Positions 2,166-45,083 of a stretch of DNA of 57,520 nucleotides are shown here, one piece after another. The DNA is from a virus: the IMG/VR virus record IMGVR_UViG_3300033153_001834, positions 1 to 57,520 of that record; one strand, written 5' to 3'. Positions within the stretch are counted from its first letter, which is position 1, and every line of letters starts with the position of its first letter. The notes below the pieces were generated by a model that did no database searches, had not been told where the DNA came from, and saw nothing but the letters and a program-made list of their open reading frames with translations. Both the position numbers and the translations under genes were made by a program.

Positions 2166-3434
2166 ATGAAAGATATAAAACTCCATATTACTCAAGAAGA
2201 ATCACTTTATTTTTTAGTAGATTCTGTCGAGTCTAATAAACCAATAGTAGCTCTTATTGGAGCCGGAGGTACTGGTAAATCTGAAATATTATCACGCTTT
2301 AAGCCATTATATAAATCTTATGAAAATAATGATAAGAAGATTTTTTATACTGCTACGACTAATAAAGCAGTATCTCGGTTAAAAGCTGATATACCAGGAG
2401 CTACTACTTTACACTCTGCGGTAAGTATGCCTAAATATACACCGTTATATGAGAACCTAGAAGATTATTTTGAAAAAATGCCTTCTGATCCAGAACGTAA
2501 AGTACGTTATAAGAAAAATTACTTATTTCGTTCTGATACATTAGAATTCTTACAAGATAATAGAATTGAGATTAAAAAGTTTGATTCTCATTTAGATATT
2601 ATATTTAGTTTAGGTTTATCCGTTTTTGATAAACCTTTCTTTGATAGATATATTGTTAAAGATAGAATTATTAATTCGGTAGTGCTAATTGATGAAGCCT
2701 CTATGCTTTCAACCAAAAGCGAATATAAAGTTGGTTCTTTAGTTACTATTGGTGTAGATACCGCATCTATGGTATTTGATAATATTATTCTTGTTGGAGA
2801 TAGTTCTCAACTCCCACCTATAAATGGAAAATCCTCTTTCGATAGTGTAGAATCTTACGAATTAACAAAAAACTTTCGTTCAGAAAAAGATTTACTTCAC
2901 GCTATTCAATGGGCTAGAGATGGAAAAAGCTTTTATAACTATGTACCAGAAGAAGAAGATACTAATGTTAGAGTGGTTAATAATATATCTAAGCAATGGT
3001 ATATTAATACATATGGCCAAGATAACGTAGTCCATATTTGTTATACGAATAAAACCCGTCATCTTATTACAAAAAGAGTTCGTGAGGAAAGAAAAGGTAG
3101 ACCAGAAATAGGCGAACCAATTATTCTTAGAGGGAATTCTGTAAATGGAGTCTCTAAAGGTGAAATAGGAATTTATGATGGAGAATATATAGTATTTGAA
3201 TCTGGTAAAATATTGCTAAGAAAATATCATAATTTTGATGAATATGAAAAAGAAAAATGGTCTATTTTTCAGTTCGCTTATGCTTCTACTGCTCATATGT
3301 ATCAAGGAAGTGCGGCTGATCACGTAATTATTCACTTATATGATATTCCTACTTTTATAGATATAGAAACAAGAAGAAAATGGATTTATACCGCTGTTTC
3401 AAGAGCTAGAAAATCAATCACTATTATATTATAG
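2166..3434 (+). CDS. SF1 DNA helicase, RecD/Dda-like
   Basis: 422 residues. Walker A GAGGTGKS at about 32-39, Walker B VVLIDEAS near 172-180, motif III GDSSQLPP near 213, and at the C-terminus the SF1 signatures AHMYQGS and YTAVSRARKSITI (UvrD_C_2 type, nucleotide and ssDNA contacts). The size matches T4 Dda-like 5'-3' helicases rather than full RecD. The likely role is remodelling forks or origins during phage replication. It has its own promoter at 2113-2141 and heads a run of replication-associated genes. Confidence 0.88.
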   Translation: MKDIKLHITQEESLYFLVDSVESNKPIVALIGAGGTGKSEILSRFKPLYKSYENNDKKIFYTATTNKAVSRLKADIPGATTLHSAVSMPKYTPLYENLEDYFEKMPSDPERKVRYKKNYLFRSDTLEFLQDNRIEIKKFDSHLDIIFSLGLSVFDKPFFDRYIVKDRIINSVVLIDEASMLSTKSEYKVGSLVTIGVDTASMVFDNIILVGDSSQLPPINGKSSFDSVESYELTKNFRSEKDLLHAIQWARDGKSFYNYVPEEEDTNVRVVNNISKQWYINTYGQDNVVHICYTNKTRHLITKRVREERKGRPEIGEPIILRGNSVNGVSKGEIGIYDGEYIVFESGKILLRKYHNFDEYEKEKWSIFQFAYASTAHMYQGSAADHVIIHLYDIPTFIDIETRRKWIYTAVSRARKSITIIL

Positions 3435-3442
3435 GGATAAAA

Positions 3443-3787
3443 ATGAATATTAATCTTTTTGAAATAATGAATGAAGTTAAAAAGAAAGTAGGTAAAGATA
3501 GTGCAGCAATACAATTCTATGAATCACGTGGAGTTAATTATATTTTACTTTCTACTTACTATAAAGAAACAAAGCTAAGCAGTGAATTTAAAGTAGAAGA
3601 AGATATGCCAAAAGAATATATAGATTATTTAGTTAAAAACTCTATTAATGAATTAAATGCATTAAGAAAGAAAGTTTATTCAGAAGATTGTCCACATTGT
3701 AATAGTAAAGGAACAGTTTGGTTTGCAGGGATTGGCGGAGGAATTAAATGCCATAATAAAGGTTGTAATTATTGGTTTTGCTATTAG
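3443..3787 (+). CDS. Small protein with C-terminal zinc ribbon
   Basis: 114 residues. The last 35 carry CPHC then CHNKGC separated by a glycine-rich loop (GIGGG), consistent with one structural zinc site. The N-terminal part is helical (FEIMNEVKKKVGK). It follows the helicase gene by eight bases with a GGGAT ribosome site, so the two are in one transcript. Possibly an accessory DNA-binding factor; no family named. Confidence 0.72.
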   Translation: MNINLFEIMNEVKKKVGKDSAAIQFYESRGVNYILLSTYYKETKLSSEFKVEEDMPKEYIDYLVKNSINELNALRKKVYSEDCPHCNSKGTVWFAGIGGGIKCHNKGCNYWFCY

Positions 3788-3796
3788 GAAAATAAA

Positions 3797-3988
3797 ATGG
3801 AAAAGAGATATTGGCAAGATTCTCATATTACTAAAAAAGATGGTAAGTATAAGGCTTGGGACGAAACAGGAGTTGATACTATCGGAGATTTTGATACGAG
3901 AGAAAAAGCAAGAGAAGCTTTATCTCAATATTCATTACAACTAGATGGAAACTATAGCGATAATGGGACAAAAAGAAAATACTACTAA
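3797..3988 (+). CDS. Very small unknown protein
   Basis: 63 residues starting MEKRYWQDSHITKKDGKYKA, with GGAAAATAAA before the ATG. The pattern of aromatic and glycine residues (KYKAWDETGVDTIGDFDTREKA) suggests a compact beta fold plus one helix. It overlaps the next gene. No function recognised. Confidence 0.6.
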   Translation: MEKRYWQDSHITKKDGKYKAWDETGVDTIGDFDTREKAREALSQYSLQLDGNYSDNGTKRKYY

Positions 3989-4211
3989 AGAAGCTATAAG
4001 AAAGTATGAAGTAGTTTCAGAATGTATACAATATATTATGAATAATTCTATTAATAATTCTGACGCTAGGCAAATACTAGATCAATTATTAGATGCTTGC
4101 GTTTATAACTTAATAGCTATTGGAGCAGATAAAGAAGAGACAGCTTTAAAACTAAATAATATTTCTATTAAAATGAAAAATTCAATTATAAAAGACGTTA
4201 TGGGGCACTAA
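3945..4211 (+). CDS. Small helical protein
   Basis: 88 residues if it starts at 3945; an in-frame ATG at 3963 gives 82 and neither has a strong ribosome site. Mostly helical (EAIRKYEVVSECIQYIM), ending KNSIIKDVMGH. Abuts the following gene directly at 4212. Function unknown. Confidence 0.6.
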   Translation: METIAIMGQKENTTKEAIRKYEVVSECIQYIMNNSINNSDARQILDQLLDACVYNLIAIGADKEETALKLNNISIKMKNSIIKDVMGH

Positions 4212-4469
4212 ATGAAAGTAGTTAATTTTATACCAGTAGGAAATCAAGTTTGTCAAAATACAATTGAAACTTTAGAGCTAATGCTTAAAGAGGCAAAAGA
4301 AGGAAAGCTTCAATCTTTTATTGGTATTACTTTATATAATAATATGGATATGGAACACGTTAAAGCTGGTGCGGTTTATGATAATTATATTTCCTTTATG
4401 GGAATGTTATCAGATTTTCAAATTGATTTTAAAGATGATTATGAGGAAAATAGTAAATGGAAACGATAG
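4212..4469 (+). CDS. Small unknown protein before the ligase
   Basis: 85 residues, MKVVNFIPVGNQVCQNTIET at the start. One predicted helix (LELMLKEAKEGKL) followed by beta-like FIGITLYNN, a layout seen in small phage proteins but with no name I can give. Its end overlaps the start of the ligase gene by 13 bases, so the two are translationally linked. Confidence 0.66.
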   Translation: MKVVNFIPVGNQVCQNTIETLELMLKEAKEGKLQSFIGITLYNNMDMEHVKAGAVYDNYISFMGMLSDFQIDFKDDYEENSKWKR

Positions 4470-5467
4470 TTACACAATTAGAAGAATATAATAAAGCATA
4501 TAGAGCAGGAAACCCTATAGTTCCTAATGAAGTATACGATGCTTTATTAGAAGAATTACCAGAAGACCATCCTTATAGGAATCAAGTTGAGCCTGAAGAA
4601 TTATATAAAGGAAGGATTAAGCATAGTAAACCTATGCTATCTATGCAAAAGGCAAAAACAAAAGAAGATATAGAAAAATGGATTAATACTATATTAGATA
4701 GCGGTTTTAAATTTAAGAGTAAAATGATTCTTATTAAATGTACCGCTAAATTAGATGGTATTGCTGGAAAAAAAGAAGATGGTACTTTAGTTACTCGTGG
4801 TGATGGTCAGTATGGTAATGATGTAACGAGTTCGTTTGATAAAGGGTTATTAGTTTTAGTAAAAGAAATTAATAATGCCGAATTAGGTGAATTTGTAATT
4901 CGCTTAGATTATTTTCAAGAAAAACTTTCTAAAGATTTTTCTCATCCTCGGAACTTCGTATCTGGTGCAATTATGGCAGATACGGTAAGCGATATAACGA
5001 ATAAGGCTTTTGAAGAAGAACAAGTAGTATTTCAAAGCTACTCACTCTTACCAAAAAAAGTTATACCTATAATAGACCTATTAAAAAACTTTAGAGAGCT
5101 TGAGGAGGCTATATCTAAATCTGTTAATTACGCTATAGATGGTGTTATCTTTGAAGTAATAAATCCATCTATAAGAAGAATTATGGGAGAGACAGATCAT
5201 CATCCTAATTGGGCAATAGCATTAAAACCAAAAGATAAAGTATATATATCAACTATATTAGAAATTAAATGGCAAACTGGTAGAACTGGTAAAGTTACTC
5301 CTGTAGTAATAATAGAAACTACTTTAATTGACGGTGTAGAAGTAAGAAGGGCTACTGCTCATAATGCTAAAATGGTAGAAACTATGGGTTTACATGTAGG
5401 TGCTAAAATTGAGTTAATTAGAAGTGGAAGTGTTATACCTTATATAGTTAGAGTTGTAGGAGAATAA
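4457..5467 (+). CDS. ligA: NAD-dependent DNA ligase, N-terminal part (adenylation + OB fold)
   Basis: 336 residues. A short domain Ia-like start (YNKAYRAGNP, YDALLEELP), the adenylation motif KLDG at about 98-101 whose lysine receives AMP, the VTRGDG motif at 112-117, DGVIFE for motif IV, WAIALKPKD for motif V, then an OB fold with GRTGKVTPV and RATAHN. It stops exactly where a full LigA would continue into zinc finger, helix-hairpin-helix and BRCT domains; those are a separate gene at 6910-7707. It can probably be adenylated by NAD alone but should need the second gene for efficient nick binding. Confidence 0.88.
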   Translation: METIVTQLEEYNKAYRAGNPIVPNEVYDALLEELPEDHPYRNQVEPEELYKGRIKHSKPMLSMQKAKTKEDIEKWINTILDSGFKFKSKMILIKCTAKLDGIAGKKEDGTLVTRGDGQYGNDVTSSFDKGLLVLVKEINNAELGEFVIRLDYFQEKLSKDFSHPRNFVSGAIMADTVSDITNKAFEEEQVVFQSYSLLPKKVIPIIDLLKNFRELEEAISKSVNYAIDGVIFEVINPSIRRIMGETDHHPNWAIALKPKDKVYISTILEIKWQTGRTGKVTPVVIIETTLIDGVEVRRATAHNAKMVETMGLHVGAKIELIRSGSVIPYIVRVVGE

Positions 5468-5468
5468 T

Positions 5469-5921
5469 ATGGGATGCGCAAGATTATCATATGTACCAAG
5501 AAATAAAAGAAAAGATGAAATTAAAAACTATGAATATGTAGAAATGCAAAGTGTTACCGATAGAAAAAAAGCATCAAAACAAGGTAATACTGGTTATGAG
5601 TTTGAAATTAATTATGGAAGACATTTTGGTTTCTATAGCCCTAACCAAATATCAAAATTTGAAGAATGTAGTGTATCTAGTAGAGTTATAGCTCAAAGAT
5701 TAACAAGACTTCAACGAAAAGAAGGGTTATTTTTAACTATTGAAGAAGCTATAAAAGCTCCTATTGATATAAGAGTAAAGAAAAATAATAATGACTTATT
5801 AAAAGAAAGAACATTAGTTAAGCAAACAGATATGGAATGGTTTAATGAAAATATTAAACTTATGAATATCGGTTCTCTACATAATAAAAGTTTAATAATA
5901 CAAAGTAGGAGTTTTATATAA
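5469..5921 (+). CDS. Unknown DNA-binding-like protein inside the split ligase
   Basis: 150 residues, starting one base after the ligase stop. The middle (YSPNQISKFEECSVSSRVIA... then FLTIEEAIKAP) resembles the helix-turn-helix repeat found next to the nuclease core in some HNH or NUMOD-type homing endonucleases (CSVS...R...EEA...P). No HNH or GIY-YIG catalytic motif is visible, so if it came from a homing endonuclease the nuclease part is gone. Its last bases overlap the thyA start. It is one of three genes separating the two ligase halves. Confidence 0.62.
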   Translation: MGCARLSYVPRNKRKDEIKNYEYVEMQSVTDRKKASKQGNTGYEFEINYGRHFGFYSPNQISKFEECSVSSRVIAQRLTRLQRKEGLFLTIEEAIKAPIDIRVKKNNNDLLKERTLVKQTDMEWFNENIKLMNIGSLHNKSLIIQSRSFI

Positions 5922-6778
5922 TGGTAAAGACTGGTGAAGAGCAATATCTTGATTTATGTAATCGAATTTTAAACGAAGGCACGATGATTAAAAATAAGCG
6001 TACTGGTAAAGGTTGCTTAACAGTTATTAATGCTGATTTTGAATACGATGCTAGTGATAATAGCTTTCCTTTAGTGACAACTAGAAAAGCGTATTGGAAA
6101 CAAGCGATAGCAGAAATACTAGGCTATTTATGTGGATATAATAACGCTCAACAATTCGCAGATATCGGTTGTAATTCCTGGTTTGCTAATGCTAATGAGA
6201 ATAAAGAATGGTTAAAAAATCCTATGCGTAGAGGTAAAAATGACTTAGGGGGTGGTTTTTCTTATGCTCAAGGAAGAAATTGGGATCAAACTAATATTGA
6301 TCAATATAAAAATATAGTTGATAAATTATCTCAAGGTATTGATGATAGACGATTAATTATGACTTTTAATAATCCAGGGTCGGCACACGCTTCAGCATTA
6401 CCAGCTTGTATGCATACTCATCATTTTTCTATACTTAATGATACTCTCTATCTAACAAGTTATCAACGTTCTATCGATGTACCATTAGGACTTGTTTTTA
6501 ATATGGGTCAAGTCGTATGGTTATTAAGAATTACTGCTCAAATTACAGGATTAAAACCTGGAATAGCTTATCATAAATTAGTTAATTGTCATCTATATGA
6601 TGATCAAATTGAATTAATGAAAGAGCAAGTTCAACGTAAACCTTTTACTCCACCTTATTTACATATTAATCCTGAGATTAGAACTCTTAAAGATTTAGAA
6701 ACCTGGGTTACTATGGATTGTTTTAGTTTAACAGGATATAAACATCACGAGCCTATTAAGTATCCATTCGCAGTATAA
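5921..6778 (+). CDS. thyA: Thymidylate synthase (ThyA family)
   Basis: 285 residues. The nucleophile is in LPACMHTHH (Cys about 163), followed by the dUMP-binding YQRSIDVPLG (181-190) and Asn about 194 in LVFNMG. That Asn selects uracil; dCMP hydroxymethylases carry Asp here. NCHLYDD gives the His/Tyr pair, and the C-terminal PFAV matches the folate-closing tail. It should methylate dUMP with methylene-tetrahydrofolate, although some phage members hydroxymethylate instead and sequence alone does not exclude that. It sits between the two ligase genes, overlapping both neighbours. Confidence 0.9.
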   Translation: MVKTGEEQYLDLCNRILNEGTMIKNKRTGKGCLTVINADFEYDASDNSFPLVTTRKAYWKQAIAEILGYLCGYNNAQQFADIGCNSWFANANENKEWLKNPMRRGKNDLGGGFSYAQGRNWDQTNIDQYKNIVDKLSQGIDDRRLIMTFNNPGSAHASALPACMHTHHFSILNDTLYLTSYQRSIDVPLGLVFNMGQVVWLLRITAQITGLKPGIAYHKLVNCHLYDDQIELMKEQVQRKPFTPPYLHINPEIRTLKDLETWVTMDCFSLTGYKHHEPIKYPFAV

Positions 6779-6909: not shown

Positions 6910-7707
6910 ATGAGCGTATTTCCAACAACCTGCATGAATTGCGGAAGTAAATTAGAATGGTCTAAGACAGGAGTAGATTTATATTGCCATAATATAAATT
7001 GCTCTGCTAAAAACGGTAGACAATTAACACATTTTTTTGGAATGTTAAATAACCTAGATGGCTTTGGACCAAAGACTATTGAAATATTAATAGAAAATGG
7101 ATATGATACTATTCCTAAGATATATGAAATGAAATGGAATGATTTTAAGATGTGTGGATTTGGAGATAAAACTTCAATAAATCTTGGTAGCGAGTTAGAG
7201 CTATCATTAGAAAGACCATTACCAGATTATCGTTTTATATCAGCATTAGGGATTCCTGATTTAGGATTAGGTGGAGCAAAGAAACTATTAGAGCATTTTT
7301 GCTGGGAAGATATATTATTTGAAATATCTTTATATGATTTTTTATCTATAGATGGTTTTGGTCAAAATAAGTCTAGCTCTATTCATAATTACTGTAGAGA
7401 AAATCGTAAATTATTATTAGAAATATCAGACCTTAGTTTTAATATTACACACGAAAAATTAATAGTAGTAGAGTCAGCTTTTACAGGAAAGCGTATATGT
7501 TTTACTGGTAAAATGGCTAGTAATAGGTCTGCAATGGAAGGGTTTGCTAGGGGGATAGGGGCTACTATTACAGGAGTAAATTCTAAAACTAATGTATTAG
7601 TTTATGGAGAAAAAGTAGGTGCTAATAAAATGAATGCTGCTAAAAAGTTTAATGTAGAAATTATGACTGAAAAAGAATTTATTGTATTAACGGGCTTTAC
7701 TTCATAG
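6910..7707 (+). CDS. ligA: NAD-dependent DNA ligase, C-terminal part (zinc finger, HhH, BRCT)
   Basis: 265 residues with its own GAGGAT ribosome site and ATG. Four cysteines (about C8, C11, C26, C31) form the LigA zinc finger; helix-hairpin-helix repeats follow (LDGFGPKTIEILIE, LGLGGAKKLL, IDGFGQNKSSSI), and a BRCT domain starts near 193 (GKRICFTGKM...SNRSAMEG). There is no nucleotidyltransferase core. In LigA these domains encircle nicked DNA, so this subunit probably joins the 4457-5467 product to make one working ligase. The split falls between the OB fold and the zinc finger. Confidence 0.87.
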   Translation: MSVFPTTCMNCGSKLEWSKTGVDLYCHNINCSAKNGRQLTHFFGMLNNLDGFGPKTIEILIENGYDTIPKIYEMKWNDFKMCGFGDKTSINLGSELELSLERPLPDYRFISALGIPDLGLGGAKKLLEHFCWEDILFEISLYDFLSIDGFGQNKSSSIHNYCRENRKLLLEISDLSFNITHEKLIVVESAFTGKRICFTGKMASNRSAMEGFARGIGATITGVNSKTNVLVYGEKVGANKMNAAKKFNVEIMTEKEFIVLTGFTS

Positions 7708-13862: not shown

Positions 13863-14031
13863 ATGCGACCATTGCGGAAAATCACCAATAGATTATTTAT
13901 TTAGTATAAGTAAATATTGGTGCTTCCATTGTAGAAAGCATTATGACTTTCCATTAAAAGAAGGTCAAAAGTCTATCCATATAAAGGGGTTAGTAGGTAA
14001 TGAAGATAGCAATAATAATACCAACAAATAA
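13852..14031 (+). CDS. 59-residue zinc-ribbon protein
   Basis: MKNKCDHCGKSPIDYLF... with CDHC and CFHC spaced about 20 residues apart forms a clean four-cysteine zinc ribbon. It starts within the helicase 3' end (11-base overlap) and its C-terminal tail (NEDSNNNTNK) overlaps the start of the glycosyltransferase gene by 32 bases. It resembles small phage zinc-ribbon proteins placed beside helicases. Confidence 0.65.
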   Translation: MKNKCDHCGKSPIDYLFSISKYWCFHCRKHYDFPLKEGQKSIHIKGLVGNEDSNNNTNK

Positions 14032-14770
14032 TTTAAAAGAAATCAATGGTTTTATTAAGTCTTTTTCTCAACTTAGTTCTTTTAAAAAGTTTTGTGAACT
14101 AGTTATAATAGGAAATGGCAATGTTAATAAAAGTAAGATTAATTATACAAATAATTTATCAATAAGATTTATTAGAATAAATGAAGATTATACAGATAAA
14201 ATTATACCTTTCGCAAAATTAAGAGGCGAAGGGATGAGAAAATCTAATGCAGATTACTTTCTTTTTATGGATGATGATAATAGATTTCTAAAAAGTTGTG
14301 ATTCTTATTTTGTAAATTGCGTACAGTTTTTACAAGATAATCCTTTATGTTCAATTTTGCAAGCTGATAAAACTAGAGATAAAAAATATGGAGCTTATTA
14401 TAAAAGCGATGGTTTTTATTGGACTGGTTATGGTTTATTCTTAAAGAATATTATTAGAGATTATAATCAATTATTAGACTTTAAAGGTTGTTGTGAAGAA
14501 ACTTTATTTGCTTATGAAACTTTAAATTTAGATGGTTTATCATATACTATGTATGGTAATCCTACTTGGAGAGATACTTCTAAGCATCCTAAATGGAATG
14601 AGGAAAATAATAATTCATATAGCGAAGAAGTTATTCAAAATAATATTCAAGGATATATACAAGAAAAATATTGCGATAGTAATTGGAGATATTATCAAAA
14701 TATTCCAAATACTAGTTTACCAAATTTATTACAAGAAAAAATTAACAAAAGGATAAAGTATGAAATCTAG
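14000..14770 (+). CDS. GT-A glycosyltransferase
   Basis: 256 residues. It begins with the nucleotide-sugar fold KIAIIIPTNN, and FLFMDDDN (acidic residues about 91-93) gives the DxD-type metal motif of family 2-like glycosyltransferases; the later GCCEETLFAYE may be the acidic catalytic loop. There is no transmembrane segment, so it is a soluble enzyme. It lies between a helicase and a DnaQ exonuclease gene, not among structural genes, so glycosylation of phage DNA bases is one possibility; host polysaccharide is the other. Confidence 0.75.
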   Translation: MKIAIIIPTNNLKEINGFIKSFSQLSSFKKFCELVIIGNGNVNKSKINYTNNLSIRFIRINEDYTDKIIPFAKLRGEGMRKSNADYFLFMDDDNRFLKSCDSYFVNCVQFLQDNPLCSILQADKTRDKKYGAYYKSDGFYWTGYGLFLKNIIRDYNQLLDFKGCCEETLFAYETLNLDGLSYTMYGNPTWRDTSKHPKWNEENNNSYSEEVIQNNIQGYIQEKYCDSNWRYYQNIPNTSLPNLLQEKINKRIKYEI

Positions 14771-15314
14771 TGATATAATAATTTTTGATACCGAAACGAC
14801 TGGTTTAGATGCTCCTTTGGCAACTAAGATAGAAAGTCAACCGTATATAACGGAATTTTACGCAGTTCGTTTAACAAAAGATTTTGAATTTATAGATGAA
14901 GTAGAAACTATGATAAAACCACCTATCCCTATTTCAGAAGAAATAACAAAAATTACTGGTATTACAGATGAAGATGTAAAAGATGCCCCTAGCTTCATTC
15001 AAGTATATGATCAGATATATAATTTATTTGAATGCTGCAAAAACGTAGTAGGCCATAATGTTATGTTTGACTTAAGACTACTTAAGTTTGAACTTTTTAG
15101 ATATGATTTAGAGTATTGTTTTAACTGGCCAAGGAATCGTATTTGTACAGTAGAAAAGAGTAAGCATTATCAAAATAAAAGATTAACTTTACAAAAGTTA
15201 CATATTCATTTATTCGGTAGTGAGTTTACTGGAGCCCATAGAGCACGACATGATGTAGAAGCTACTGCAAAATGTTTTATGGAAATGGTAAGAAGAGGAG
15301 ATATAGTATTATGA
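14760..15314 (+). CDS. DnaQ-family 3'-5' exonuclease
   Basis: 184 residues. ExoI motif DTETTG (Asp10, Glu12), ExoII HNVMFD (Asp about 104), and ExoIII GAHRARHD (His about 160, Asp about 165), the DEDDh pattern of the Pol III epsilon subunit. It should proofread for the DnaE-type polymerase encoded at 16700-19669, which has no exonuclease of its own. It overlaps the glycosyltransferase gene by 11 bases and the next gene by four (ATGA). Confidence 0.9.
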   Translation: MKSSDIIIFDTETTGLDAPLATKIESQPYITEFYAVRLTKDFEFIDEVETMIKPPIPISEEITKITGITDEDVKDAPSFIQVYDQIYNLFECCKNVVGHNVMFDLRLLKFELFRYDLEYCFNWPRNRICTVEKSKHYQNKRLTLQKLHIHLFGSEFTGAHRARHDVEATAKCFMEMVRRGDIVL

Positions 15315-15757
15315 ATTTTATTTATATAGCAGGTCCATTTTTTAATAATAAACAAAAAGGTTTAATTAAAAGAATTGAAAAAGAATTAGATAAATACGGA
15401 ATTAAGTATTTTTCACCTCGTTCTGAAGGAGTATTAATTGATATGACTCCAGAAGAAAAAGAAGAACAAATGGTAAAGATATTTGATTCTAATATATTTC
15501 ATTTAGAAAATTGTAAAGGAGTAATAGCGGTAATAGATGATTGGGATACTGGTACAGTATTTGAAATTGGATATGCTAATGCTATAGAAAAACCAATTTT
15601 TACCTTATCAGATAATGATTATGGATTAAATGTTATGGTTAGGCAAGCCGTTAGATGTCATAATATAGACGTAAAAAATGCAGTTATAAATATACTTCAG
15701 CATTTTTCAGAATCAGAGCTTACTGGAATGAAAGAATTAACTAAAGATGTAACTTAA
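15311..15757 (+). CDS. Nucleoside 2-deoxyribosyltransferase
   Basis: 148 residues from ATG at 15311 (GGAG at 15297-15300; the ATG overlaps the upstream stop). IYIAGPFF at 4-11 is the characteristic start, and DDWDTGTVFEIGYA (about 76-89) holds the catalytic Glu about 85 and the nucleotide-binding GTxxEIG. These enzymes move deoxyribose between bases or release bases from deoxynucleotides. The phage could use it to salvage host nucleotides or to handle an unusual base. Confidence 0.82.
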   Translation: MNFIYIAGPFFNNKQKGLIKRIEKELDKYGIKYFSPRSEGVLIDMTPEEKEEQMVKIFDSNIFHLENCKGVIAVIDDWDTGTVFEIGYANAIEKPIFTLSDNDYGLNVMVRQAVRCHNIDVKNAVINILQHFSESELTGMKELTKDVT

Positions 15758-15828: not shown

Positions 15829-16230
15829 ATGAGAAGATCAAACTATAATAAACATCAAAAAAATAAAAATAAAAAGTATAGAGAAGGCAAAAGAAGATAT
15901 AAATTCGACAGAAATGATATTATTAAAAAGATTAAAGTTAGAATCATAGATGATCCTATTCAAAAATCTATTGATGAATATAATAAAAATCATTTTGGTT
16001 TTCTTTGTACTAACTATGATGATGCTCTTATTGTAAGAGTTACATTAAATCATCTTCGTCATCATTTTACTAATTATGATGAAATACTAAAGACTTTAAA
16101 TCATGCGGACTATGATTTTAATGGATTAAAAGAATTAGTTAATAAAAAAATTATGAAAAAATATAGACATTATTTTGAGGATATAAACGAATGGGCCCTG
16201 AAGGATATTATGAAAGGCTGTATAGGTTAA
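15829..16230 (+). CDS. Basic unknown protein
   Basis: 133 residues. The first 35 are strongly basic (MRRSNYNKHQKNKNKKYREG, then KRRYKFDRND), which suggests nucleic acid binding. The rest is helical with histidines (LNHLRHHFTNYDEILKTLNH). It sits directly behind the operator-like inverted repeat and could be a regulator acting on it, but no helix-turn-helix is recognised. The end overlaps the HD-domain gene by 40 bases. Confidence 0.66.
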   Translation: MRRSNYNKHQKNKNKKYREGKRRYKFDRNDIIKKIKVRIIDDPIQKSIDEYNKNHFGFLCTNYDDALIVRVTLNHLRHHFTNYDEILKTLNHADYDFNGLKELVNKKIMKKYRHYFEDINEWALKDIMKGCIG

Positions 16231-16700
16231 CATATATAGTAAGGTACAGTAATGTACCAAGAGTTAATAATGAAGATGTAGCTCAACATTCTTTTTTAGT
16301 TGCTGCTATTTTATTTCAACTTCATATGGAATATAAATTTAATCTAGGAGATGCATTAGAATTAGCAGTAGCTCACGATATATTAGAATCAGAAACATCT
16401 GATGTATGTCATCTTTTAAAGAAAGAGCATCCGGATTTATACACAGCATTAAAGAAGGCAGAAAAAGAAGCTGCAATACGTTTTCCTATATCTATTCAAA
16501 TAGCAATAGAAAGATATGATGAAAATAAATCAATAGAAGCTAAAGTGGTTCATTTAGCTGATGCAATGCAATGTCAACAATATGCTGAAAATGAAATCAG
16601 ACTTGGGTCTAATCATTATTTTAAAGAAGTACGTTCAAATAGTATTAAAAGAATAAACTTTTTAAAGGCTGAATTAAGTCAATTTTATATAGGTGAATAA
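16191..16700 (+). CDS. HD-domain phosphohydrolase, YfbR-like
   Basis: 169 residues. The HD metal ligands are visible as H33 in EDVAQHSFLVA, H62-D63 in AVAHDILE, and D124 in VVHLADAM. The layout (RYSNVPRVNNEDVAQHS near 18-34) matches YfbR-type 5'-deoxynucleotidases, which remove phosphate from dNMPs. In phages such enzymes may cut competing dNMP pools or help nucleotide exchange. The stop touches the polymerase start (16700). Confidence 0.82.
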   Translation: MGPEGYYERLYRLTYIVRYSNVPRVNNEDVAQHSFLVAAILFQLHMEYKFNLGDALELAVAHDILESETSDVCHLLKKEHPDLYTALKKAEKEAAIRFPISIQIAIERYDENKSIEAKVVHLADAMQCQQYAENEIRLGSNHYFKEVRSNSIKRINFLKAELSQFYIGE

Positions 16701-19715: not shown

Positions 19716-19756
19716 TCCCTTATAATTAATTTAAAAAGAAAGTGAGAAATAAGAAA

Positions 19757-20455
19757 ATGGTTGATTTAGTATATAGAAATACATATAATATGTTTGTTAG
19801 ACCTTGTACTTCTGATGATTTAGTTTGCGATGAAGCTCAAGAATATTTAAGACTTTTTATTGATAAAAAAAATTATGATGTATTTCTTGATATAGGGGCT
19901 AATATTGGTTCTGTAACTTCTTTAGCAAAAGAAATTAATCCGATTATGGAAATAATCTGTTACGAACCAGATAAAGAGAATTTTGATGTATTGCATAGTA
20001 ATACTAAAAACTTTTCAAGTATAAGACGTTATAGAGTAGCATTAGGAACTGGAGAAAAAGATATTAATCTTTTTAAAGCAAAAGGTTCTAATAAAGGAAA
20101 GCACTCTATAATAAGTAGAAGTTGTAATATGGATAAACCAACTAACGTTCATCAATTAGATTTTAGAAAAGAGCTAATTAGAACTAATTGTACTCTTTTA
20201 AAGATTGATATTGAAGGTGGTGAGTATAGTTTAGACCTTTATAATTTACCAGAAAAAATTAAAGGTTTAGCTATTGAATTCCATCTTATAGATAATAACT
20301 ATAGTCAAATGCTTTATTTATATCAAGGAATTAAAAGTCAATTTGGTTTAGTTTTAGGTGATACTCCAGAAGAAGAGTCACTAGAATATTTTAAAGAAGC
20401 GTATAGTGAAAAAGACAGCGCATTTATGTGCATATTTTTAAGGAATGAAAAATGA
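19757..20455 (+). CDS. FkbM-family SAM methyltransferase
   Basis: About 232 residues from ATG at 19757; a GTG at 19742 would add five. The SAM-binding motif I is FLDIGANIGSVTSLA, followed by CYEPDKENF for the acidic motif II and LLKIDIEGGEY for the FkbM-typical EGGE. FkbM enzymes O-methylate sugars or hydroxyls. Placed next to a nucleotide kinase and ThyX-like gene, and with a glycosyltransferase 5 kb upstream, it may methylate a sugar or base on DNA, or else a surface glycan. Confidence 0.82.
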   Translation: MVDLVYRNTYNMFVRPCTSDDLVCDEAQEYLRLFIDKKNYDVFLDIGANIGSVTSLAKEINPIMEIICYEPDKENFDVLHSNTKNFSSIRRYRVALGTGEKDINLFKAKGSNKGKHSIISRSCNMDKPTNVHQLDFRKELIRTNCTLLKIDIEGGEYSLDLYNLPEKIKGLAIEFHLIDNNYSQMLYLYQGIKSQFGLVLGDTPEEESLEYFKEAYSEKDSAFMCIFLRNEK

Positions 20456-20898
20456 AATGTATTAGTATAACTGGTATTGATAAGTCAGGAAAATCTACTT
20501 TAATTCAAAGAGTATGGGATGCAACTAATGGTAATTACTATGTTGCAGATAGAGACTTATCTACTCGTCATTTTTTTAATATTCTTCTAGGAAGAGTTAA
20601 TAAAAATGATAAAGTTTATCATAAAGAGTATAAAAATAAAATAGCTGCATATAGACAGTTATTAGATTTAGCAGTACTATTAGAAGTTAACGAGTTTGAT
20701 TGGAAACTAAGATGTCACTCTCATAAAGAGAAACCGTTAGTTGGTAATCTTAGTTTTGGTTTACATCAAAAAGCGTTAATAAAACATTTTGATAAAGCTC
20801 ATTATAAAAATGTGCTTAAACTTAATACTTCAGAATTATCTGAAGATGAATGCTTCGATGCTATAATGAAGCGATTGGGATTATATGGGAGAAAATAA
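20452..20898 (+). CDS. Small P-loop nucleotide kinase, thymidylate kinase-like
   Basis: 148 residues, start overlapping the methyltransferase stop (ATGA). P-loop GIDKSGKST at about 8-16, then a VADRDLST region resembling the DRY motif of thymidylate kinases, and a short C-terminal part. It is well below the usual 200-plus residues, so the LID region is reduced. Directly followed by the ThyX-like gene, so the two may act on the same (possibly modified) dUMP/dTMP-type nucleotide. Confidence 0.7.
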   Translation: MKCISITGIDKSGKSTLIQRVWDATNGNYYVADRDLSTRHFFNILLGRVNKNDKVYHKEYKNKIAAYRQLLDLAVLLEVNEFDWKLRCHSHKEKPLVGNLSFGLHQKALIKHFDKAHYKNVLKLNTSELSEDECFDAIMKRLGLYGRK

Positions 20899-21795
20899 AT
20901 GCCAATAGATAACAGTTTACCAGACCATCCGCTTTTAGTAAATTTAAAAACTGGTAAAAAGCCGGTTACGCAATATATTAATGGATTAAATGCTATTAAT
21001 GTTCGTATACTAGAAGCACCAACTATTACAACTTTAGAAAGCTATATTCCTGAATTTACATCTGGAACATGGGAAGATAATCCAGTTTATGGTTTTTCTA
21101 AAGAACAAAGGAGTCAAGCTGTAAATGATTTATTTGATGGTTATTTATTGCCTACTGCTCTTGAAACTATTAAAATTACCTTCATCGTAGAAGGCATTGA
21201 TTTACCTGATGTTTGTCATTTAATTCGTCATCGAACTATGGGCTTTAGTGCTTCTGGTACAGGTGATAGAGATTCAAGAAACGATAAAGTATTATTAAAA
21301 CCATCTATTATTGGTTCTAAGTATGAAGCTAGTATAAAACTAGCTACAGATATATTAAAAGAAACTTATGCTAAAATGATGGATGATCCAGATATTCCAG
21401 TATTAGATGCTAGAACAATTCTTCCAAGAAATACTAATAATTATTATTATGTAACTGCAGACTTAAAGGCAATCTTTGCTTTTATCGGTCAACGTAAGGA
21501 TGAAAGTATTGAACCTGAGACTATGAATATCTTTGCTCTTAAATTATGGTTAGAGATATGTAAAATTTATCCAAAATTAAAAGATAAAATAGATTTACGT
21601 GGTCCAGATCATTTTGCTATTAAGACTTCTATCGGTGGACGTTCATCTAATTTCTATAGACCAGAACCTAAAAATGATATTTATAACTATAAATTGAATT
21701 GGTTTATGAAACAAAAGATGCGTCAAGAAATGCGTGGTGGAGATCAATATATTAAATTAAGAGATTCTATTTTAAAAGAGATAGATAAATTATAA
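20899..21795 (+). CDS. thyX: ThyX-like flavin-dependent thymidylate synthase homolog, altered motif
   Basis: 298 residues. A ThyX fold is supported by RHR at 110-112, DARTILPRNTN (170-180) for the ARxxLP region, and TADLKAIFAFIGQR (186-199) for the R-ending motif. The diagnostic RHRxxSxNExSxRY box is not intact: after RHR comes TMGFSASGTGDRDSR, lacking the NExS core. The reaction may therefore differ from plain dUMP methylation. A normal ThyA is also present, so this copy is free to have a different role, for example a modified pyrimidine. Confidence 0.75.
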   Translation: MPIDNSLPDHPLLVNLKTGKKPVTQYINGLNAINVRILEAPTITTLESYIPEFTSGTWEDNPVYGFSKEQRSQAVNDLFDGYLLPTALETIKITFIVEGIDLPDVCHLIRHRTMGFSASGTGDRDSRNDKVLLKPSIIGSKYEASIKLATDILKETYAKMMDDPDIPVLDARTILPRNTNNYYYVTADLKAIFAFIGQRKDESIEPETMNIFALKLWLEICKIYPKLKDKIDLRGPDHFAIKTSIGGRSSNFYRPEPKNDIYNYKLNWFMKQKMRQEMRGGDQYIKLRDSILKEIDKL

Positions 21796-44500: not shown

Positions 44501-45083
44501 TATTTACTGCAGCAGATAACGTAGACATTGTCTTAGACATATTAACTAAAGCAGCATTATTCTTTTTAATAGCAGTATTATTCATATTAATACTACTATT
44601 TAATTTTGACATCGAAGTAATATTACTTCTTATTGATGTATCTAATGACTTATTAGTAGTAACTAATGCTTTTGTAGATTTTACACTATTAGATAAAGAA
44701 GTATTTAGTGTTTTTGTTTGAGTCGATAACATTTTAATGCTTCTAGTACTATTTTTCATAGAAGCATTAAGAGATTTAGTTTGAGTAGTAAGAAGTTTTG
44801 AGTTAGCAACACTCTTCTTTAAACTTGCATTTAAATATTTAGTTTGAGTTACTAGTTTTCCAGTATTAACGGCACTCTTTTTAGTGCTATCGCTTAATCT
44901 TTTGGTTTGAGTATTTAGTTTTCCAACTTCGGCTGAAGCTTTTGATAATGTTTTATTTAAAGCAGTAGAGTTCTTATTGAGATTCTTAACGTGAACATCA
45001 TTAGATTGTAAAACTTTAGATAGTGCGGTTAAGTCTTTTAAAGCCTTAGTTGCATCTATTATAATCTTTGATTGATAATCCAC
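41544..45083 (-). CDS. Tape measure protein
   Basis: 1179 residues, about the length expected for a roughly 180 nm tail. The N-terminal 290 residues are a run of 7- to 21-residue repeats (TQTKSLNASMKNS, TQTKTLNTSLSNS, TNKSLDTSIRSN), all helical. A hydrophobic segment (LVLFRTAMLAATAYAGIKLY) follows, then the tape-measure core, a long coiled coil, and the C-terminal tail-tip sequence GEAGPEAIMPLTRKNG. Length sets tail length; the C-terminus is processed or inserted during DNA entry. Confidence 0.9.
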   Translation of the reverse strand: MDYQSKIIIDATKALKDLTALSKVLQSNDVHVKNLNKNSTALNKTLSKASAEVGKLNTQTKRLSDSTKKSAVNTGKLVTQTKYLNASLKKSVANSKLLTTQTKSLNASMKNSTRSIKMLSTQTKTLNTSLSNSVKSTKALVTTNKSLDTSIRSNITSMSKLNSSINMNNTAIKKNNAALVNMSKTMSTLSAAVNKSITGMRTLASQTKTLNANLAKNSANILALKNSMTSLGAATNKSAMELANFNRNSAMLNASLNANTMALNKLSKQMMLLGVSLNANTAAMSKYRRVSVATASSQKALGISMGFVNKFLKIQLVLFRTAMLAATAYAGIKLYIEFNKTAESLDLMGRKLETFTGNTEALDIVKTSAFKTGFAIQDLGRIITRFAITTEGAFSTSTLAKWTEGLVMSARAAGTSTTEMNNALIQLSQSFSAGFLMGDEYRSISENLPLFKMALRDVADEAGYAGQSLKELSSGRKLDIELMTKALERLSETSMEYTFALDNIEAAEQRVKIGWDLWANAVAESRALKDSLNFLAGLLANLANDGAAMNAMTAGFPDMAKDVEELTTFLFDLYDTSGLVYDSWARLFAFMELPGDETFRMEAIAGSIELVYDALNDLPINIKTVTTIMLSSFMSFKNSVVILFETLYQDLRMGFIDTFGTIDKYITRIRIGFNEVTGDDEEVKSLRASLEATNQVLAENNKQYENLWANAGKRLEAEKTFDANIQQMALADRDKVKVELDHEKQMNKDFREAIREDAKNQAQITAEIDKGYTKRKVTDKKAVTAYNNAVKKSTKDLIKFREEQAELNNEIEKLKNPFDKAYDSFDDKIDLEKKLEVLANARKLNTISQEEFNTTFAKAIEQTKEYIELNEANAINELARSYDDVKAATYEYAEVQYDLNILKEKGKISNDAYNRSLFESERALKLVLARAGEMSQQDQMFQGMKDGLDDFSLNSKTVFEEMSEITTKSFNSMTDQLAEFVTTGKMDVRSLVDSIIKDLARLAIQKSITEPLAASFSSVIGSIFGGATSSSMITSQTGFTGGTSGVLSGAEFATWANGGAFNKGVQAFANGGIVNKPTLFPFADGTGLMGEAGPEAIMPLTRKNGKLGVEASGTKSENNTTVNVYNNSTGSQATTKETTDDKGHKTIDVMIEEKINASIQNGSLDKQMGSVYGVKRRGF

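What the first reader, a model, noticed from the sequence alone, without database searches (positions are those of the whole stretch)
20452..21795. Both ThyA and a ThyX-like protein in one phage, the latter with an altered signature
ThyA (5921-6778) keeps the dUMP-selecting residues, while the ThyX-like protein lacks the NExS core of the RHR box but keeps the rest of the fold. A short thymidylate kinase-like gene lies directly before it. Two thymidylate enzymes in one phage are redundant unless one makes a different pyrimidine, for example a hydroxymethyl or larger thymidine.
Basis: partly seen in the sequence, partly recalled or inferred. Interest (0 to 1): 0.76.

Follow-up and report, generated by a model that had tools for sequence, protein, structure and literature searches.

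The report
Phage ThyX-like gene in base-modification module
This phage carries, besides a normal thymidylate synthase, a changed relative of a second kind of thymidylate synthase; relatives in many phages sit beside the same two nucleotide-processing genes, and the cultured phages with that gene set include two whose DNA is known to contain heavily altered thymine, so the gene probably helps build an unusual DNA base, although no chemistry has been done.

Summary
ThyA (5921-6778) is an ordinary T4-type enzyme. The 20899-21795 product has the ThyX fold (best Z 14.9, Mtb ThyX) but a rebuilt dUMP loop: RHRTMGFSASGTGDR. SxRY occurs in 78/80 canonical viral ThyX and 1/87 members of this family, whereas R110, R172 and R199 are invariant. 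Redundancy alone is a weak argument: 12 of 71 non-redundant records carry a second synthase (3 ThyA, 9 canonical-scoring ThyX). The stronger evidence is context. In 91 loci the gene has a nucleoside deoxyribosyltransferase (NDT) nearby in 82 and a YfbR/DatZ-type HD phosphohydrolase in 75, usually adjacent, against 1 (NDT) and 2 (HD) of 57 canonical ThyX loci. The window has both (15272-15757, 16191-16700). Five cultured phages with an SP-15 gp130-type ThyX derivative carry NDT (5/5) and HD (4/5); they include SP-15 (dihydroxypentyl-uracil DNA) and YerA41 (~1 kDa-modified thymidine). Best reading: nucleotide-level synthesis of a C5-modified pyrimidine, with HD and NDT clearing or recycling the canonical pool. 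Unproven: substrate, carbon donor, DNA chemistry. Against: the window still avoids CGCG, GATC and CATG, and the gp130 link rests on partner genes, not ThyX sequence similarity.

The parts
20899..21795 (+). ThyX-like protein (298 aa), proposed C5-pyrimidine-modifying flavoenzyme
   Evidence: Pfam Thy1 E 5.8e-12; AF2 model pLDDT 90.8; ThyX fold Z 14.9; 52 relatives in viral contigs
21226..21270 (+). altered signature R110-R124 (RHRTMGFSASGTGDR) in place of RHRxxSxNExSxRY
   Evidence: alignments A1/A2; residue counts over 87 non-redundant relatives; SxRY 1/87 vs 78/80
20452..20898 (+). short P-loop (thymidylate-kinase-like) protein, 148 aa
   Evidence: Walker A GIDKSGKS and DR motif; homologues in 25 of 91 loci, 14 of them within 50 bp of ThyX-like; family match of the window copy not significant
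15272..15757 (+). nucleoside 2-deoxyribosyltransferase-family protein (NDT)
   Evidence: Pfam Nuc_deoxyrib_tr E 1.8e-19; family best PDB match N-deoxyribosyltransferase 6evs E 1.6e-21; Y18, N74, D92, E98, N120 (near-)invariant
16191..16700 (+). HD-domain phosphohydrolase, YfbR/DatZ type
   Evidence: Pfam YfbR-like E 1.7e-15; phrog_7076 dATP triphosphohydrolase E 1.2e-15; metal and catalytic residues invariant
5921..6778 (+). ordinary T4-type thymidylate synthase ThyA, the presumed dTMP source
   Evidence: Pfam E 4e-67; NCBIfam; 55-58% identity to phage ThyA
7880..8188 (+). DUF6378 protein; a related family abuts ThyX-like in 26 loci; possible accessory, not adjacent here
19742..20455 (+). FkbM-type methyltransferase directly upstream of the kinase; possible accessory, not conserved with the module
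   Evidence: Pfam Methyltransf_21 E 1.1e-5

Best explanation
The ThyX-like protein is the base-making enzyme of a phage module for a C5-modified pyrimidine deoxynucleotide. By its fold and invariant arginines it still binds reduced flavin and a pyrimidine (inferred), but the loop that in ThyX grips the dUMP phosphate and carries the lid tyrosine has been rebuilt, so substrate or carbon donor differs from dUMP plus methylene-folate (inferred). Its product is phosphorylated, perhaps by the adjacent small kinase, and incorporated during replication (inferred). The HD phosphohydrolase strips phosphate from competing canonical dNTP/dNMP and the NDT acts on the resulting deoxynucleosides, removing or recycling them (inferred from DatZ, DmtZ and the DSS3_VP1 dTMPase). 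ThyA, or in some sister phages a canonical ThyX, keeps making dTMP. Shown here: fold, signature change, gene linkage, intact catalytic residues in HD and NDT, and presence of the same partner set in phages with known hypermodified thymine. Not shown: any reaction, or any modified base in this phage.
For: Linkage: of 91 loci holding a non-redundant ThyX-like gene, 82 have NDT and 75 HD within 8 kb; 69 of 73 loci with both have NDT and HD abutting. Reverse: 75 of the 80 best NDT-seeded and 52 of 62 new HD-seeded viral loci contain a ThyX-like gene. Control: NDT in 1 and HD in 2 of 57 canonical ThyX loci, one of them a contig that also carries the module. Random viral contigs: none in 368 kb. Active site: R110, R172, R199 87/87; SxRY 1/87 vs 78/80. 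Separate branch in a tree, SH-aLRT 90, with sampled second-copy ThyX from the same contigs outside it. Second synthases: 3 ThyA, 9 canonical-scoring ThyX; sister phage L005 has a textbook RHRTQSYNELSARY ThyX as well. Cultured phages: SP-15 (hypermodified thymine, >50% of T; PMC5977210) encodes NDT gp127, HD gp90, divergent Thy1 gp130 and a second Thy1 gp9; gp130 homologues occur in YerA41 (~1 kDa thymidine substitution, PMC9023294), GXN1, Carin-5 and Va2, with NDT in 5/5 and HD in 4/5 of these phages. At E<1e-3 the window HD finds only GR1, GXN1, SP-15 and one phage where HD abuts an annotated 'pyrimidine hmase' and a glucosyl transferase. YfbR-family HD enzymes and an NDT-family enzyme do pool clearing in other base-substituted phages (PMC8065100, PMC12697855, PMC12884076).
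Against: No chemistry on any phage with this ThyX-like clade. The window avoids CGCG (O/E 0.06), GATC (0.35) and CATG (0.37), unexpected if its DNA were fully restriction-proof. SP-15 gp130 is not detected by the ThyX-like profiles and hhalign gives E 0.19, so that bridge rests on the shared partners and a common Pfam family. Most records have no second thymidylate synthase, as expected also if the enzyme makes dTMP. Close relatives L005 and L006 lack NDT and HD in the sequence held. No glycosylation cluster like SP-15's was found in the window.
Confidence: 0.6

Rival explanations
1. The ThyX-like enzyme is a divergent but true dTMP synthase, and NDT plus HD are a salvage and rebalancing set that re-uses host nucleotides for an AT-rich phage genome.
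For: Most records with the gene have no other thymidylate synthase, including the complete GR1 genome; dCMP deaminase and dUTPase-like genes that supply dUMP recur nearby; a study of Roseobacter phages interprets phage NDT and dCMP deaminase as pool rebalancing (PMC11981692); the window avoids some palindromes.
Against: Lid Tyr and phosphate-binding Ser/Arg are lost family-wide, and Y91 mutation in T. maritima ThyX slows flavin oxidation 1000-fold (PMC11940539); canonical ThyX phages lack the NDT-HD pair; 12 of 71 records carry a full additional synthase; the same pair marks SP-15 and YerA41.
Confidence: 0.25
2. A narrower form of the best explanation: it is a one-carbon enzyme with changed base or product choice that methylates or hydroxymethylates dCMP or dUMP (5mC, 5hmC or 5hmU DNA), the ThyX counterpart of T4 gp42 or SPO1 gp29.
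For: The pairing with a normal ThyA resembles T4; HD of this family abuts an annotated pyrimidine hydroxymethylase and a glucosyl transferase in MW202897; gp130 of SP-15 was proposed as hydroxymethyluridylate synthase (PMC5977210).
Against: The base-facing arginines are unchanged, which does not suggest a switch from uracil to cytosine; the changed part is the sugar-phosphate/lid loop.
Confidence: 0.35
3. A flavoprotein of ThyX descent that does not modify pyrimidine nucleotides at all.
For: Strong divergence of the active-site loop; neighbouring FkbM methyltransferase.
Against: R95/R172/R199 equivalents invariant, and consistent company of pyrimidine and dNTP enzymes.
Confidence: 0.06

Closest known systems
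Flavin-dependent thymidylate synthase ThyX (M. tuberculosis, T. maritima; PF02511)
   Same: Fold (Z 14.9), RHR flavin motif, ARxxLP and the Arg equivalent to Mtb R199
   Different: No SxRY dUMP-phosphate/lid segment; Leu at the position aligned with the folate-stacking His53 of T. maritima; phage clade; linked to NDT and HD
Bacillus phage SP-15 gp130/gp127/gp90 (dihydroxypentyl-uracil phage)
   Same: Divergent Thy1 protein, NDT and YfbR-type HD in one phage, plus a second Thy1 (gp9)
   Different: gp130 is 413 aa, reads IRQH instead of RHR, and is not found by ThyX-like profiles; SP-15 has a large glycosylation cluster
Z-genome phages (PurZ with DatZ/MazZ or DutZ/DmtZ)
   Same: A base-making enzyme with a YfbR-type HD phosphohydrolase and/or an NDT-family enzyme that clears the canonical pool (PMC8065100, PMC12884076)
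   Different: Base maker is ThyX-derived, hence pyrimidine; no PurZ seen in the genes annotated; NDT resembles nucleoside-type transferases more than DNPH1-type hydrolases
dU-DNA Roseophage DSS3_VP1 (HD dTMP phosphatase)
   Same: YfbR-family HD enzyme removing a canonical pyrimidine nucleotide (PMC12697855)
   Different: dU phages degrade dTMP rather than build a C5-modified base
Mildiomycin MilA/MilB and polyoxin PolB
   Same: Thymidylate-synthase-type enzyme paired with an NDT-family N-glycosidase (MilA/MilB); a ThyX homologue with changed substrate (PolB)
   Different: Antibiotic pathways on ribonucleotides; MilA is of the ThyA family (from general knowledge and abstracts)

Membership tests
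ThyX / FDTS (PF02511) | ThyX fold | tested here: met
   AF2 model, Z 14.9 to 3gwc, first non-ThyX row 4.8
ThyX / FDTS (PF02511) | Pfam family score above gathering cut-off | tested here: met
   46.2 bits vs 24.8
ThyX / FDTS (PF02511) | RHRxxSxNExSxRY signature (dUMP phosphate and lid part) | tested here: not met
   RHRTMGFSASGTGDR; SxRY in 1/87 relatives vs 78/80 canonical
ThyX / FDTS (PF02511) | equivalog score (NCBIfam TIGR02170) | tested here: not met
   38.8 bits vs cut-off 87.9
ThyX / FDTS (PF02511) | dUMP + methylene-folate to dTMP with FAD | not testable with these tools
   needs enzyme assay
Thymidylate kinase (PF02223) | family match of the 20452-20898 product | tested here: not met
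   no Pfam Thymidylate_kin hit at E 0.1; phrog_761 E 0.031
Thymidylate kinase (PF02223) | P-loop and DR motif | tested here: met
   GIDKSGKS, ADRD; lost in the L006 homologue
YfbR/DatZ-type HD phosphohydrolase (PF12917) | family score and metal/catalytic residues (R, H, HD, E, D, E, D) | tested here: met
   57.6 bits vs 25.9; R18, H33, H62, D63, E66, D71, E91, D124 invariant or nearly so
YfbR/DatZ-type HD phosphohydrolase (PF12917) | which dNTP or dNMP it hydrolyses | not testable with these tools
   needs assay
Nucleoside deoxyribosyltransferase (PF05014) | family score and catalytic Tyr/Asn(Asp)/Glu | tested here: met
   70.4 bits vs 28.8; Y18 80/80, N74 79/80, E98 80/80
SP-15-type thymine hypermodification system | divergent Thy1 + NDT + HD in one genome | tested here: met
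   window 20899, 15272, 16191; SP-15 gp130, gp127, gp90
SP-15-type thymine hypermodification system | Thy1 component homologous to gp130 beyond Pfam family level | tested here: not met
   no profile hit; hhalign E 0.19
SP-15-type thymine hypermodification system | modified thymine in the DNA | not testable with these tools
   needs nucleoside mass spectrometry

The most novel reading that the evidence does not exclude
The ThyX-like enzyme is a flavin-dependent C5-alkyltransferase that uses a pentose-derived aldehyde instead of methylene-folate: HD makes deoxynucleosides, NDT frees their (deoxy)ribose, the sugar aldehyde forms a flavin-N5 carbinolamine (as formaldehyde does in ThyX, PMC8316439) and is transferred to C5 of a uracil nucleotide, and reductases such as the SDR genes seen next to the gene in several relatives finish a dihydroxypentyl-like chain. 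This would explain why NDT and HD travel with it, and the title-level report that ribose label enters the SP-15 base (reference 42 in PMC5977210).
Probability: 0.17. Interest if true: 0.92.

Novelty: new variant of a known kind. Interest (0 to 1): 0.74.

Why it matters
A ThyX-derived enzyme with a fixed NDT-HD partner pair, in scores of distinct phages, would be the pyrimidine counterpart of the PurZ-DatZ (Z-genome) system and would give a gene-level handle on how SP-15 and YerA41 make their hypermodified thymine, unresolved since the 1970s for SP-15. It predicts modified DNA in many uncultured phages now annotated as having ordinary thymidylate synthase, and in one cultured phage, Geobacillus phage GR1, where it can be tested directly.

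Tried and rejected
Xp12 lead (5-methylcytosine phage): its record is not in the collection, and the MetaGPA and AXL1 papers point to ThyA-type enzymes. XcP1 ThyX (RTRTGAYQQETSRALD) is another divergent form, outside the main ThyX-like branch. The idea that the family is generally paired with ThyA was rejected: 4 of 50 records in the first set, one of them a weak match, and 0 over cut-off in the second. Palindrome avoidance: module phages avoid 6-bp palindromes less than canonical-ThyX phages (p 7e-11) and random viral contigs (p 2e-4) at GC >= 0.36, but not at GC < 0.36 where the window lies (0.32), and hosts differ, so I give it little weight. Profile comparison of gp130 with the window family failed. 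A ThyA-seeded viral scan returned nothing. Cellular relatives: one archaeal MAG contig only, probably viral. Foldseek/VIA lists show ThyX only; absence of other folds there proves nothing.

Full report
What is there. The window is a 57.5 kb viral record. ThyA at 5921-6778 is a normal T4-type enzyme with the dUMP-selecting Asn. The 20899-21795 product matches Pfam Thy1 (E 5.8e-12) but falls far short of the ThyX equivalog cut-off. Its AlphaFold2 model (pLDDT 90.8) has the ThyX fold; the top rows are M. tuberculosis ThyX, Z 14.9, and the first unrelated row scores 4.8. A 148-aa P-loop protein with Walker A and a DR motif ends right before it.

The signature. In 87 non-redundant relatives R110, R172 and R199 (M. 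tuberculosis R95, R172, R199 by alignment) never change, while the loop that in M. tuberculosis ThyX supplies S105, R107 and the lid Y108 (PMC6514825) is rebuilt as SFSAQ[CG]TGDR, AAQVHGDR, SAQSTDPV and other forms. SxRY is present in 78 of 80 canonical viral ThyX and 1 of 87 relatives; the position aligned with the folate-stacking H53 of T. maritima is Leu in 77 of 87. M. tuberculosis ThyX itself has SQ rather than NE, so the NE part alone means little.

Two synthases. Whole-record searches of 100 records found ThyA with a full-strength match in L006, L041 and L042, besides the window, and a second, canonical-scoring ThyX in nine non-redundant records; four of those I read carry textbook signatures, among them the window's sister L005, RHRTQSYNELSARY. 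Of 50 canonical-ThyX records, one has a divergent second ThyX and three have weak ThyA-type matches. So the pair is recurrent but a minority, and redundancy is only a hint.

The module. Clustering neighbours gave the main result. Of 91 loci with a non-redundant ThyX-like gene, 82 have an NDT and 75 a YfbR-type HD gene, usually NDT-HD-[MazG-like or kinase]-ThyX, often with overlapping ends. The module occurs with either a family-A polymerase or a Pol III alpha, so it moves between phages. Seeding with NDT or HD leads back to ThyX-like in 75 of 80 and 52 of 62 loci; the NDT set was the 80 best of 350, which favours this family. Canonical-ThyX loci have NDT in 1 and HD in 2 of 57. NDT and HD keep their catalytic residues almost without exception, so both should be active; NDT keeps the D92 and N120 positions of nucleoside-type enzymes (correspondence from my own knowledge). 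In the window both genes are present but separated from ThyX-like by the polymerase gene.

Link to known chemistry. SP-15, whose DNA has 5-(4',5'-dihydroxypentyl)uracil in place of over half its thymine, encodes two Thy1 proteins; its describers proposed gp9 as thymidylate synthase and gp130 as hydroxymethyluridylate synthase (PMC5977210). I find that SP-15 also encodes an NDT (gp127, near gp130; profile E 1.1e-28) and a YfbR-type HD (gp90; 2.7e-19). gp130 homologues exist in YerA41, whose thymidine carries a ~1 kDa substitution (PMC9023294), and in GXN1, Carin-5 and Va2; NDT is present in 5 of 5 of these phages and HD in 4 of 5. In GXN1, NDT and HD are close relatives of those in the module (E 3.5e-37, 3.6e-41) and lie directly upstream of the gp130 homologue, which joins the two groups through the partners. 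gp130 itself is too far from the window's clade for profile detection. In 50,697 phage records the window's HD finds GR1, GXN1, SP-15 and one phage with HD next to 'pyrimidine hmase' and 'glucosyl transferase'.

How it probably works. In Z-genome phages a base maker (PurZ) is accompanied by a YfbR-type HD enzyme (DatZ) or an NDT-family enzyme (DmtZ) that clears the canonical nucleotide (PMC8065100, PMC12884076); in a dU phage a YfbR-type HD enzyme is a dTMPase (PMC12697855). By analogy the ThyX-like protein is the base maker of a pyrimidine system. Whether it adds one carbon or a sugar-derived chain is open; ThyX can take formaldehyde directly through a flavin carbinolamine (PMC8316439), and SDR genes abut some relatives, which makes a larger aldehyde conceivable.

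Doubts. The window avoids CGCG, GATC and CATG, which is unexpected for protected DNA. Most relatives are contig fragments. L005 and L006 lack NDT and HD in what is held. No experiment exists. I file it as a ThyX-fold protein that fails the FDTS signature and equivalog tests, working in a base-modification module: new variant of a known kind.

Noticed in passing
window 4457-5467 and 6910-7707: NAD-dependent DNA ligase is split into two ORFs with a 150-aa ORF and thyA between them.
   Followed up: no
window, whole sequence: CGCG (O/E 0.06), GATC (0.35) and CATG (0.37) are strongly avoided while most other 4-bp palindromes are nearer expectation.
   Followed up: partly
L003 (IMGVR_UViG_3300008255_000193): The HD gene is cut by the contig ends (pieces at 44626-45009 and 7-246), so this 45,009 bp contig is probably a complete circular genome carrying the module without ThyA or a second ThyX.
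   Followed up: partly
L006 9569-9994: The kinase-like gene of a close relative has lost its Walker A motif (GISESFNK), suggesting that kinase activity is dispensable there.
   Followed up: no
L199 (Streptococcus phage GXN1) about 14492-14881: Unannotated NDT gene directly upstream of the annotated HD gene and of a gp130-type 'thymidylate synthetase'.
   Followed up: partly
L330 (Yersinia phage YerA41) 6380-6861: YerA41_086, annotated as mannosyltransferase, matches the NDT profile (E 4.5e-21); YerA41_081 (hypothetical) is a gp130 homologue.
   Followed up: partly
L333 (MW202897) 2203-4501: HD of this family abuts genes annotated pyrimidine hydroxymethylase and glucosyl transferase.
   Followed up: partly
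L055 12016-12774 and 13862-14557: Carpasinavirus XcP1 has another divergent ThyX (RTRTGAYQQETSRALD), close to an SDR gene and, further on, a Pol III alpha gene.
   Followed up: no
L030, L032, L033, L035: An NAD-dependent epimerase/dehydratase (SDR) gene starts 3-4 bp after the ThyX-like gene in these loci.
   Followed up: partly
window 14000-14770: Weak glycosyltransferase-2 match (E 0.0019) between the helicase and exonuclease genes; L006 has other, unrelated ORFs (a methyltransferase-like protein among them) at the same place.
   Followed up: no
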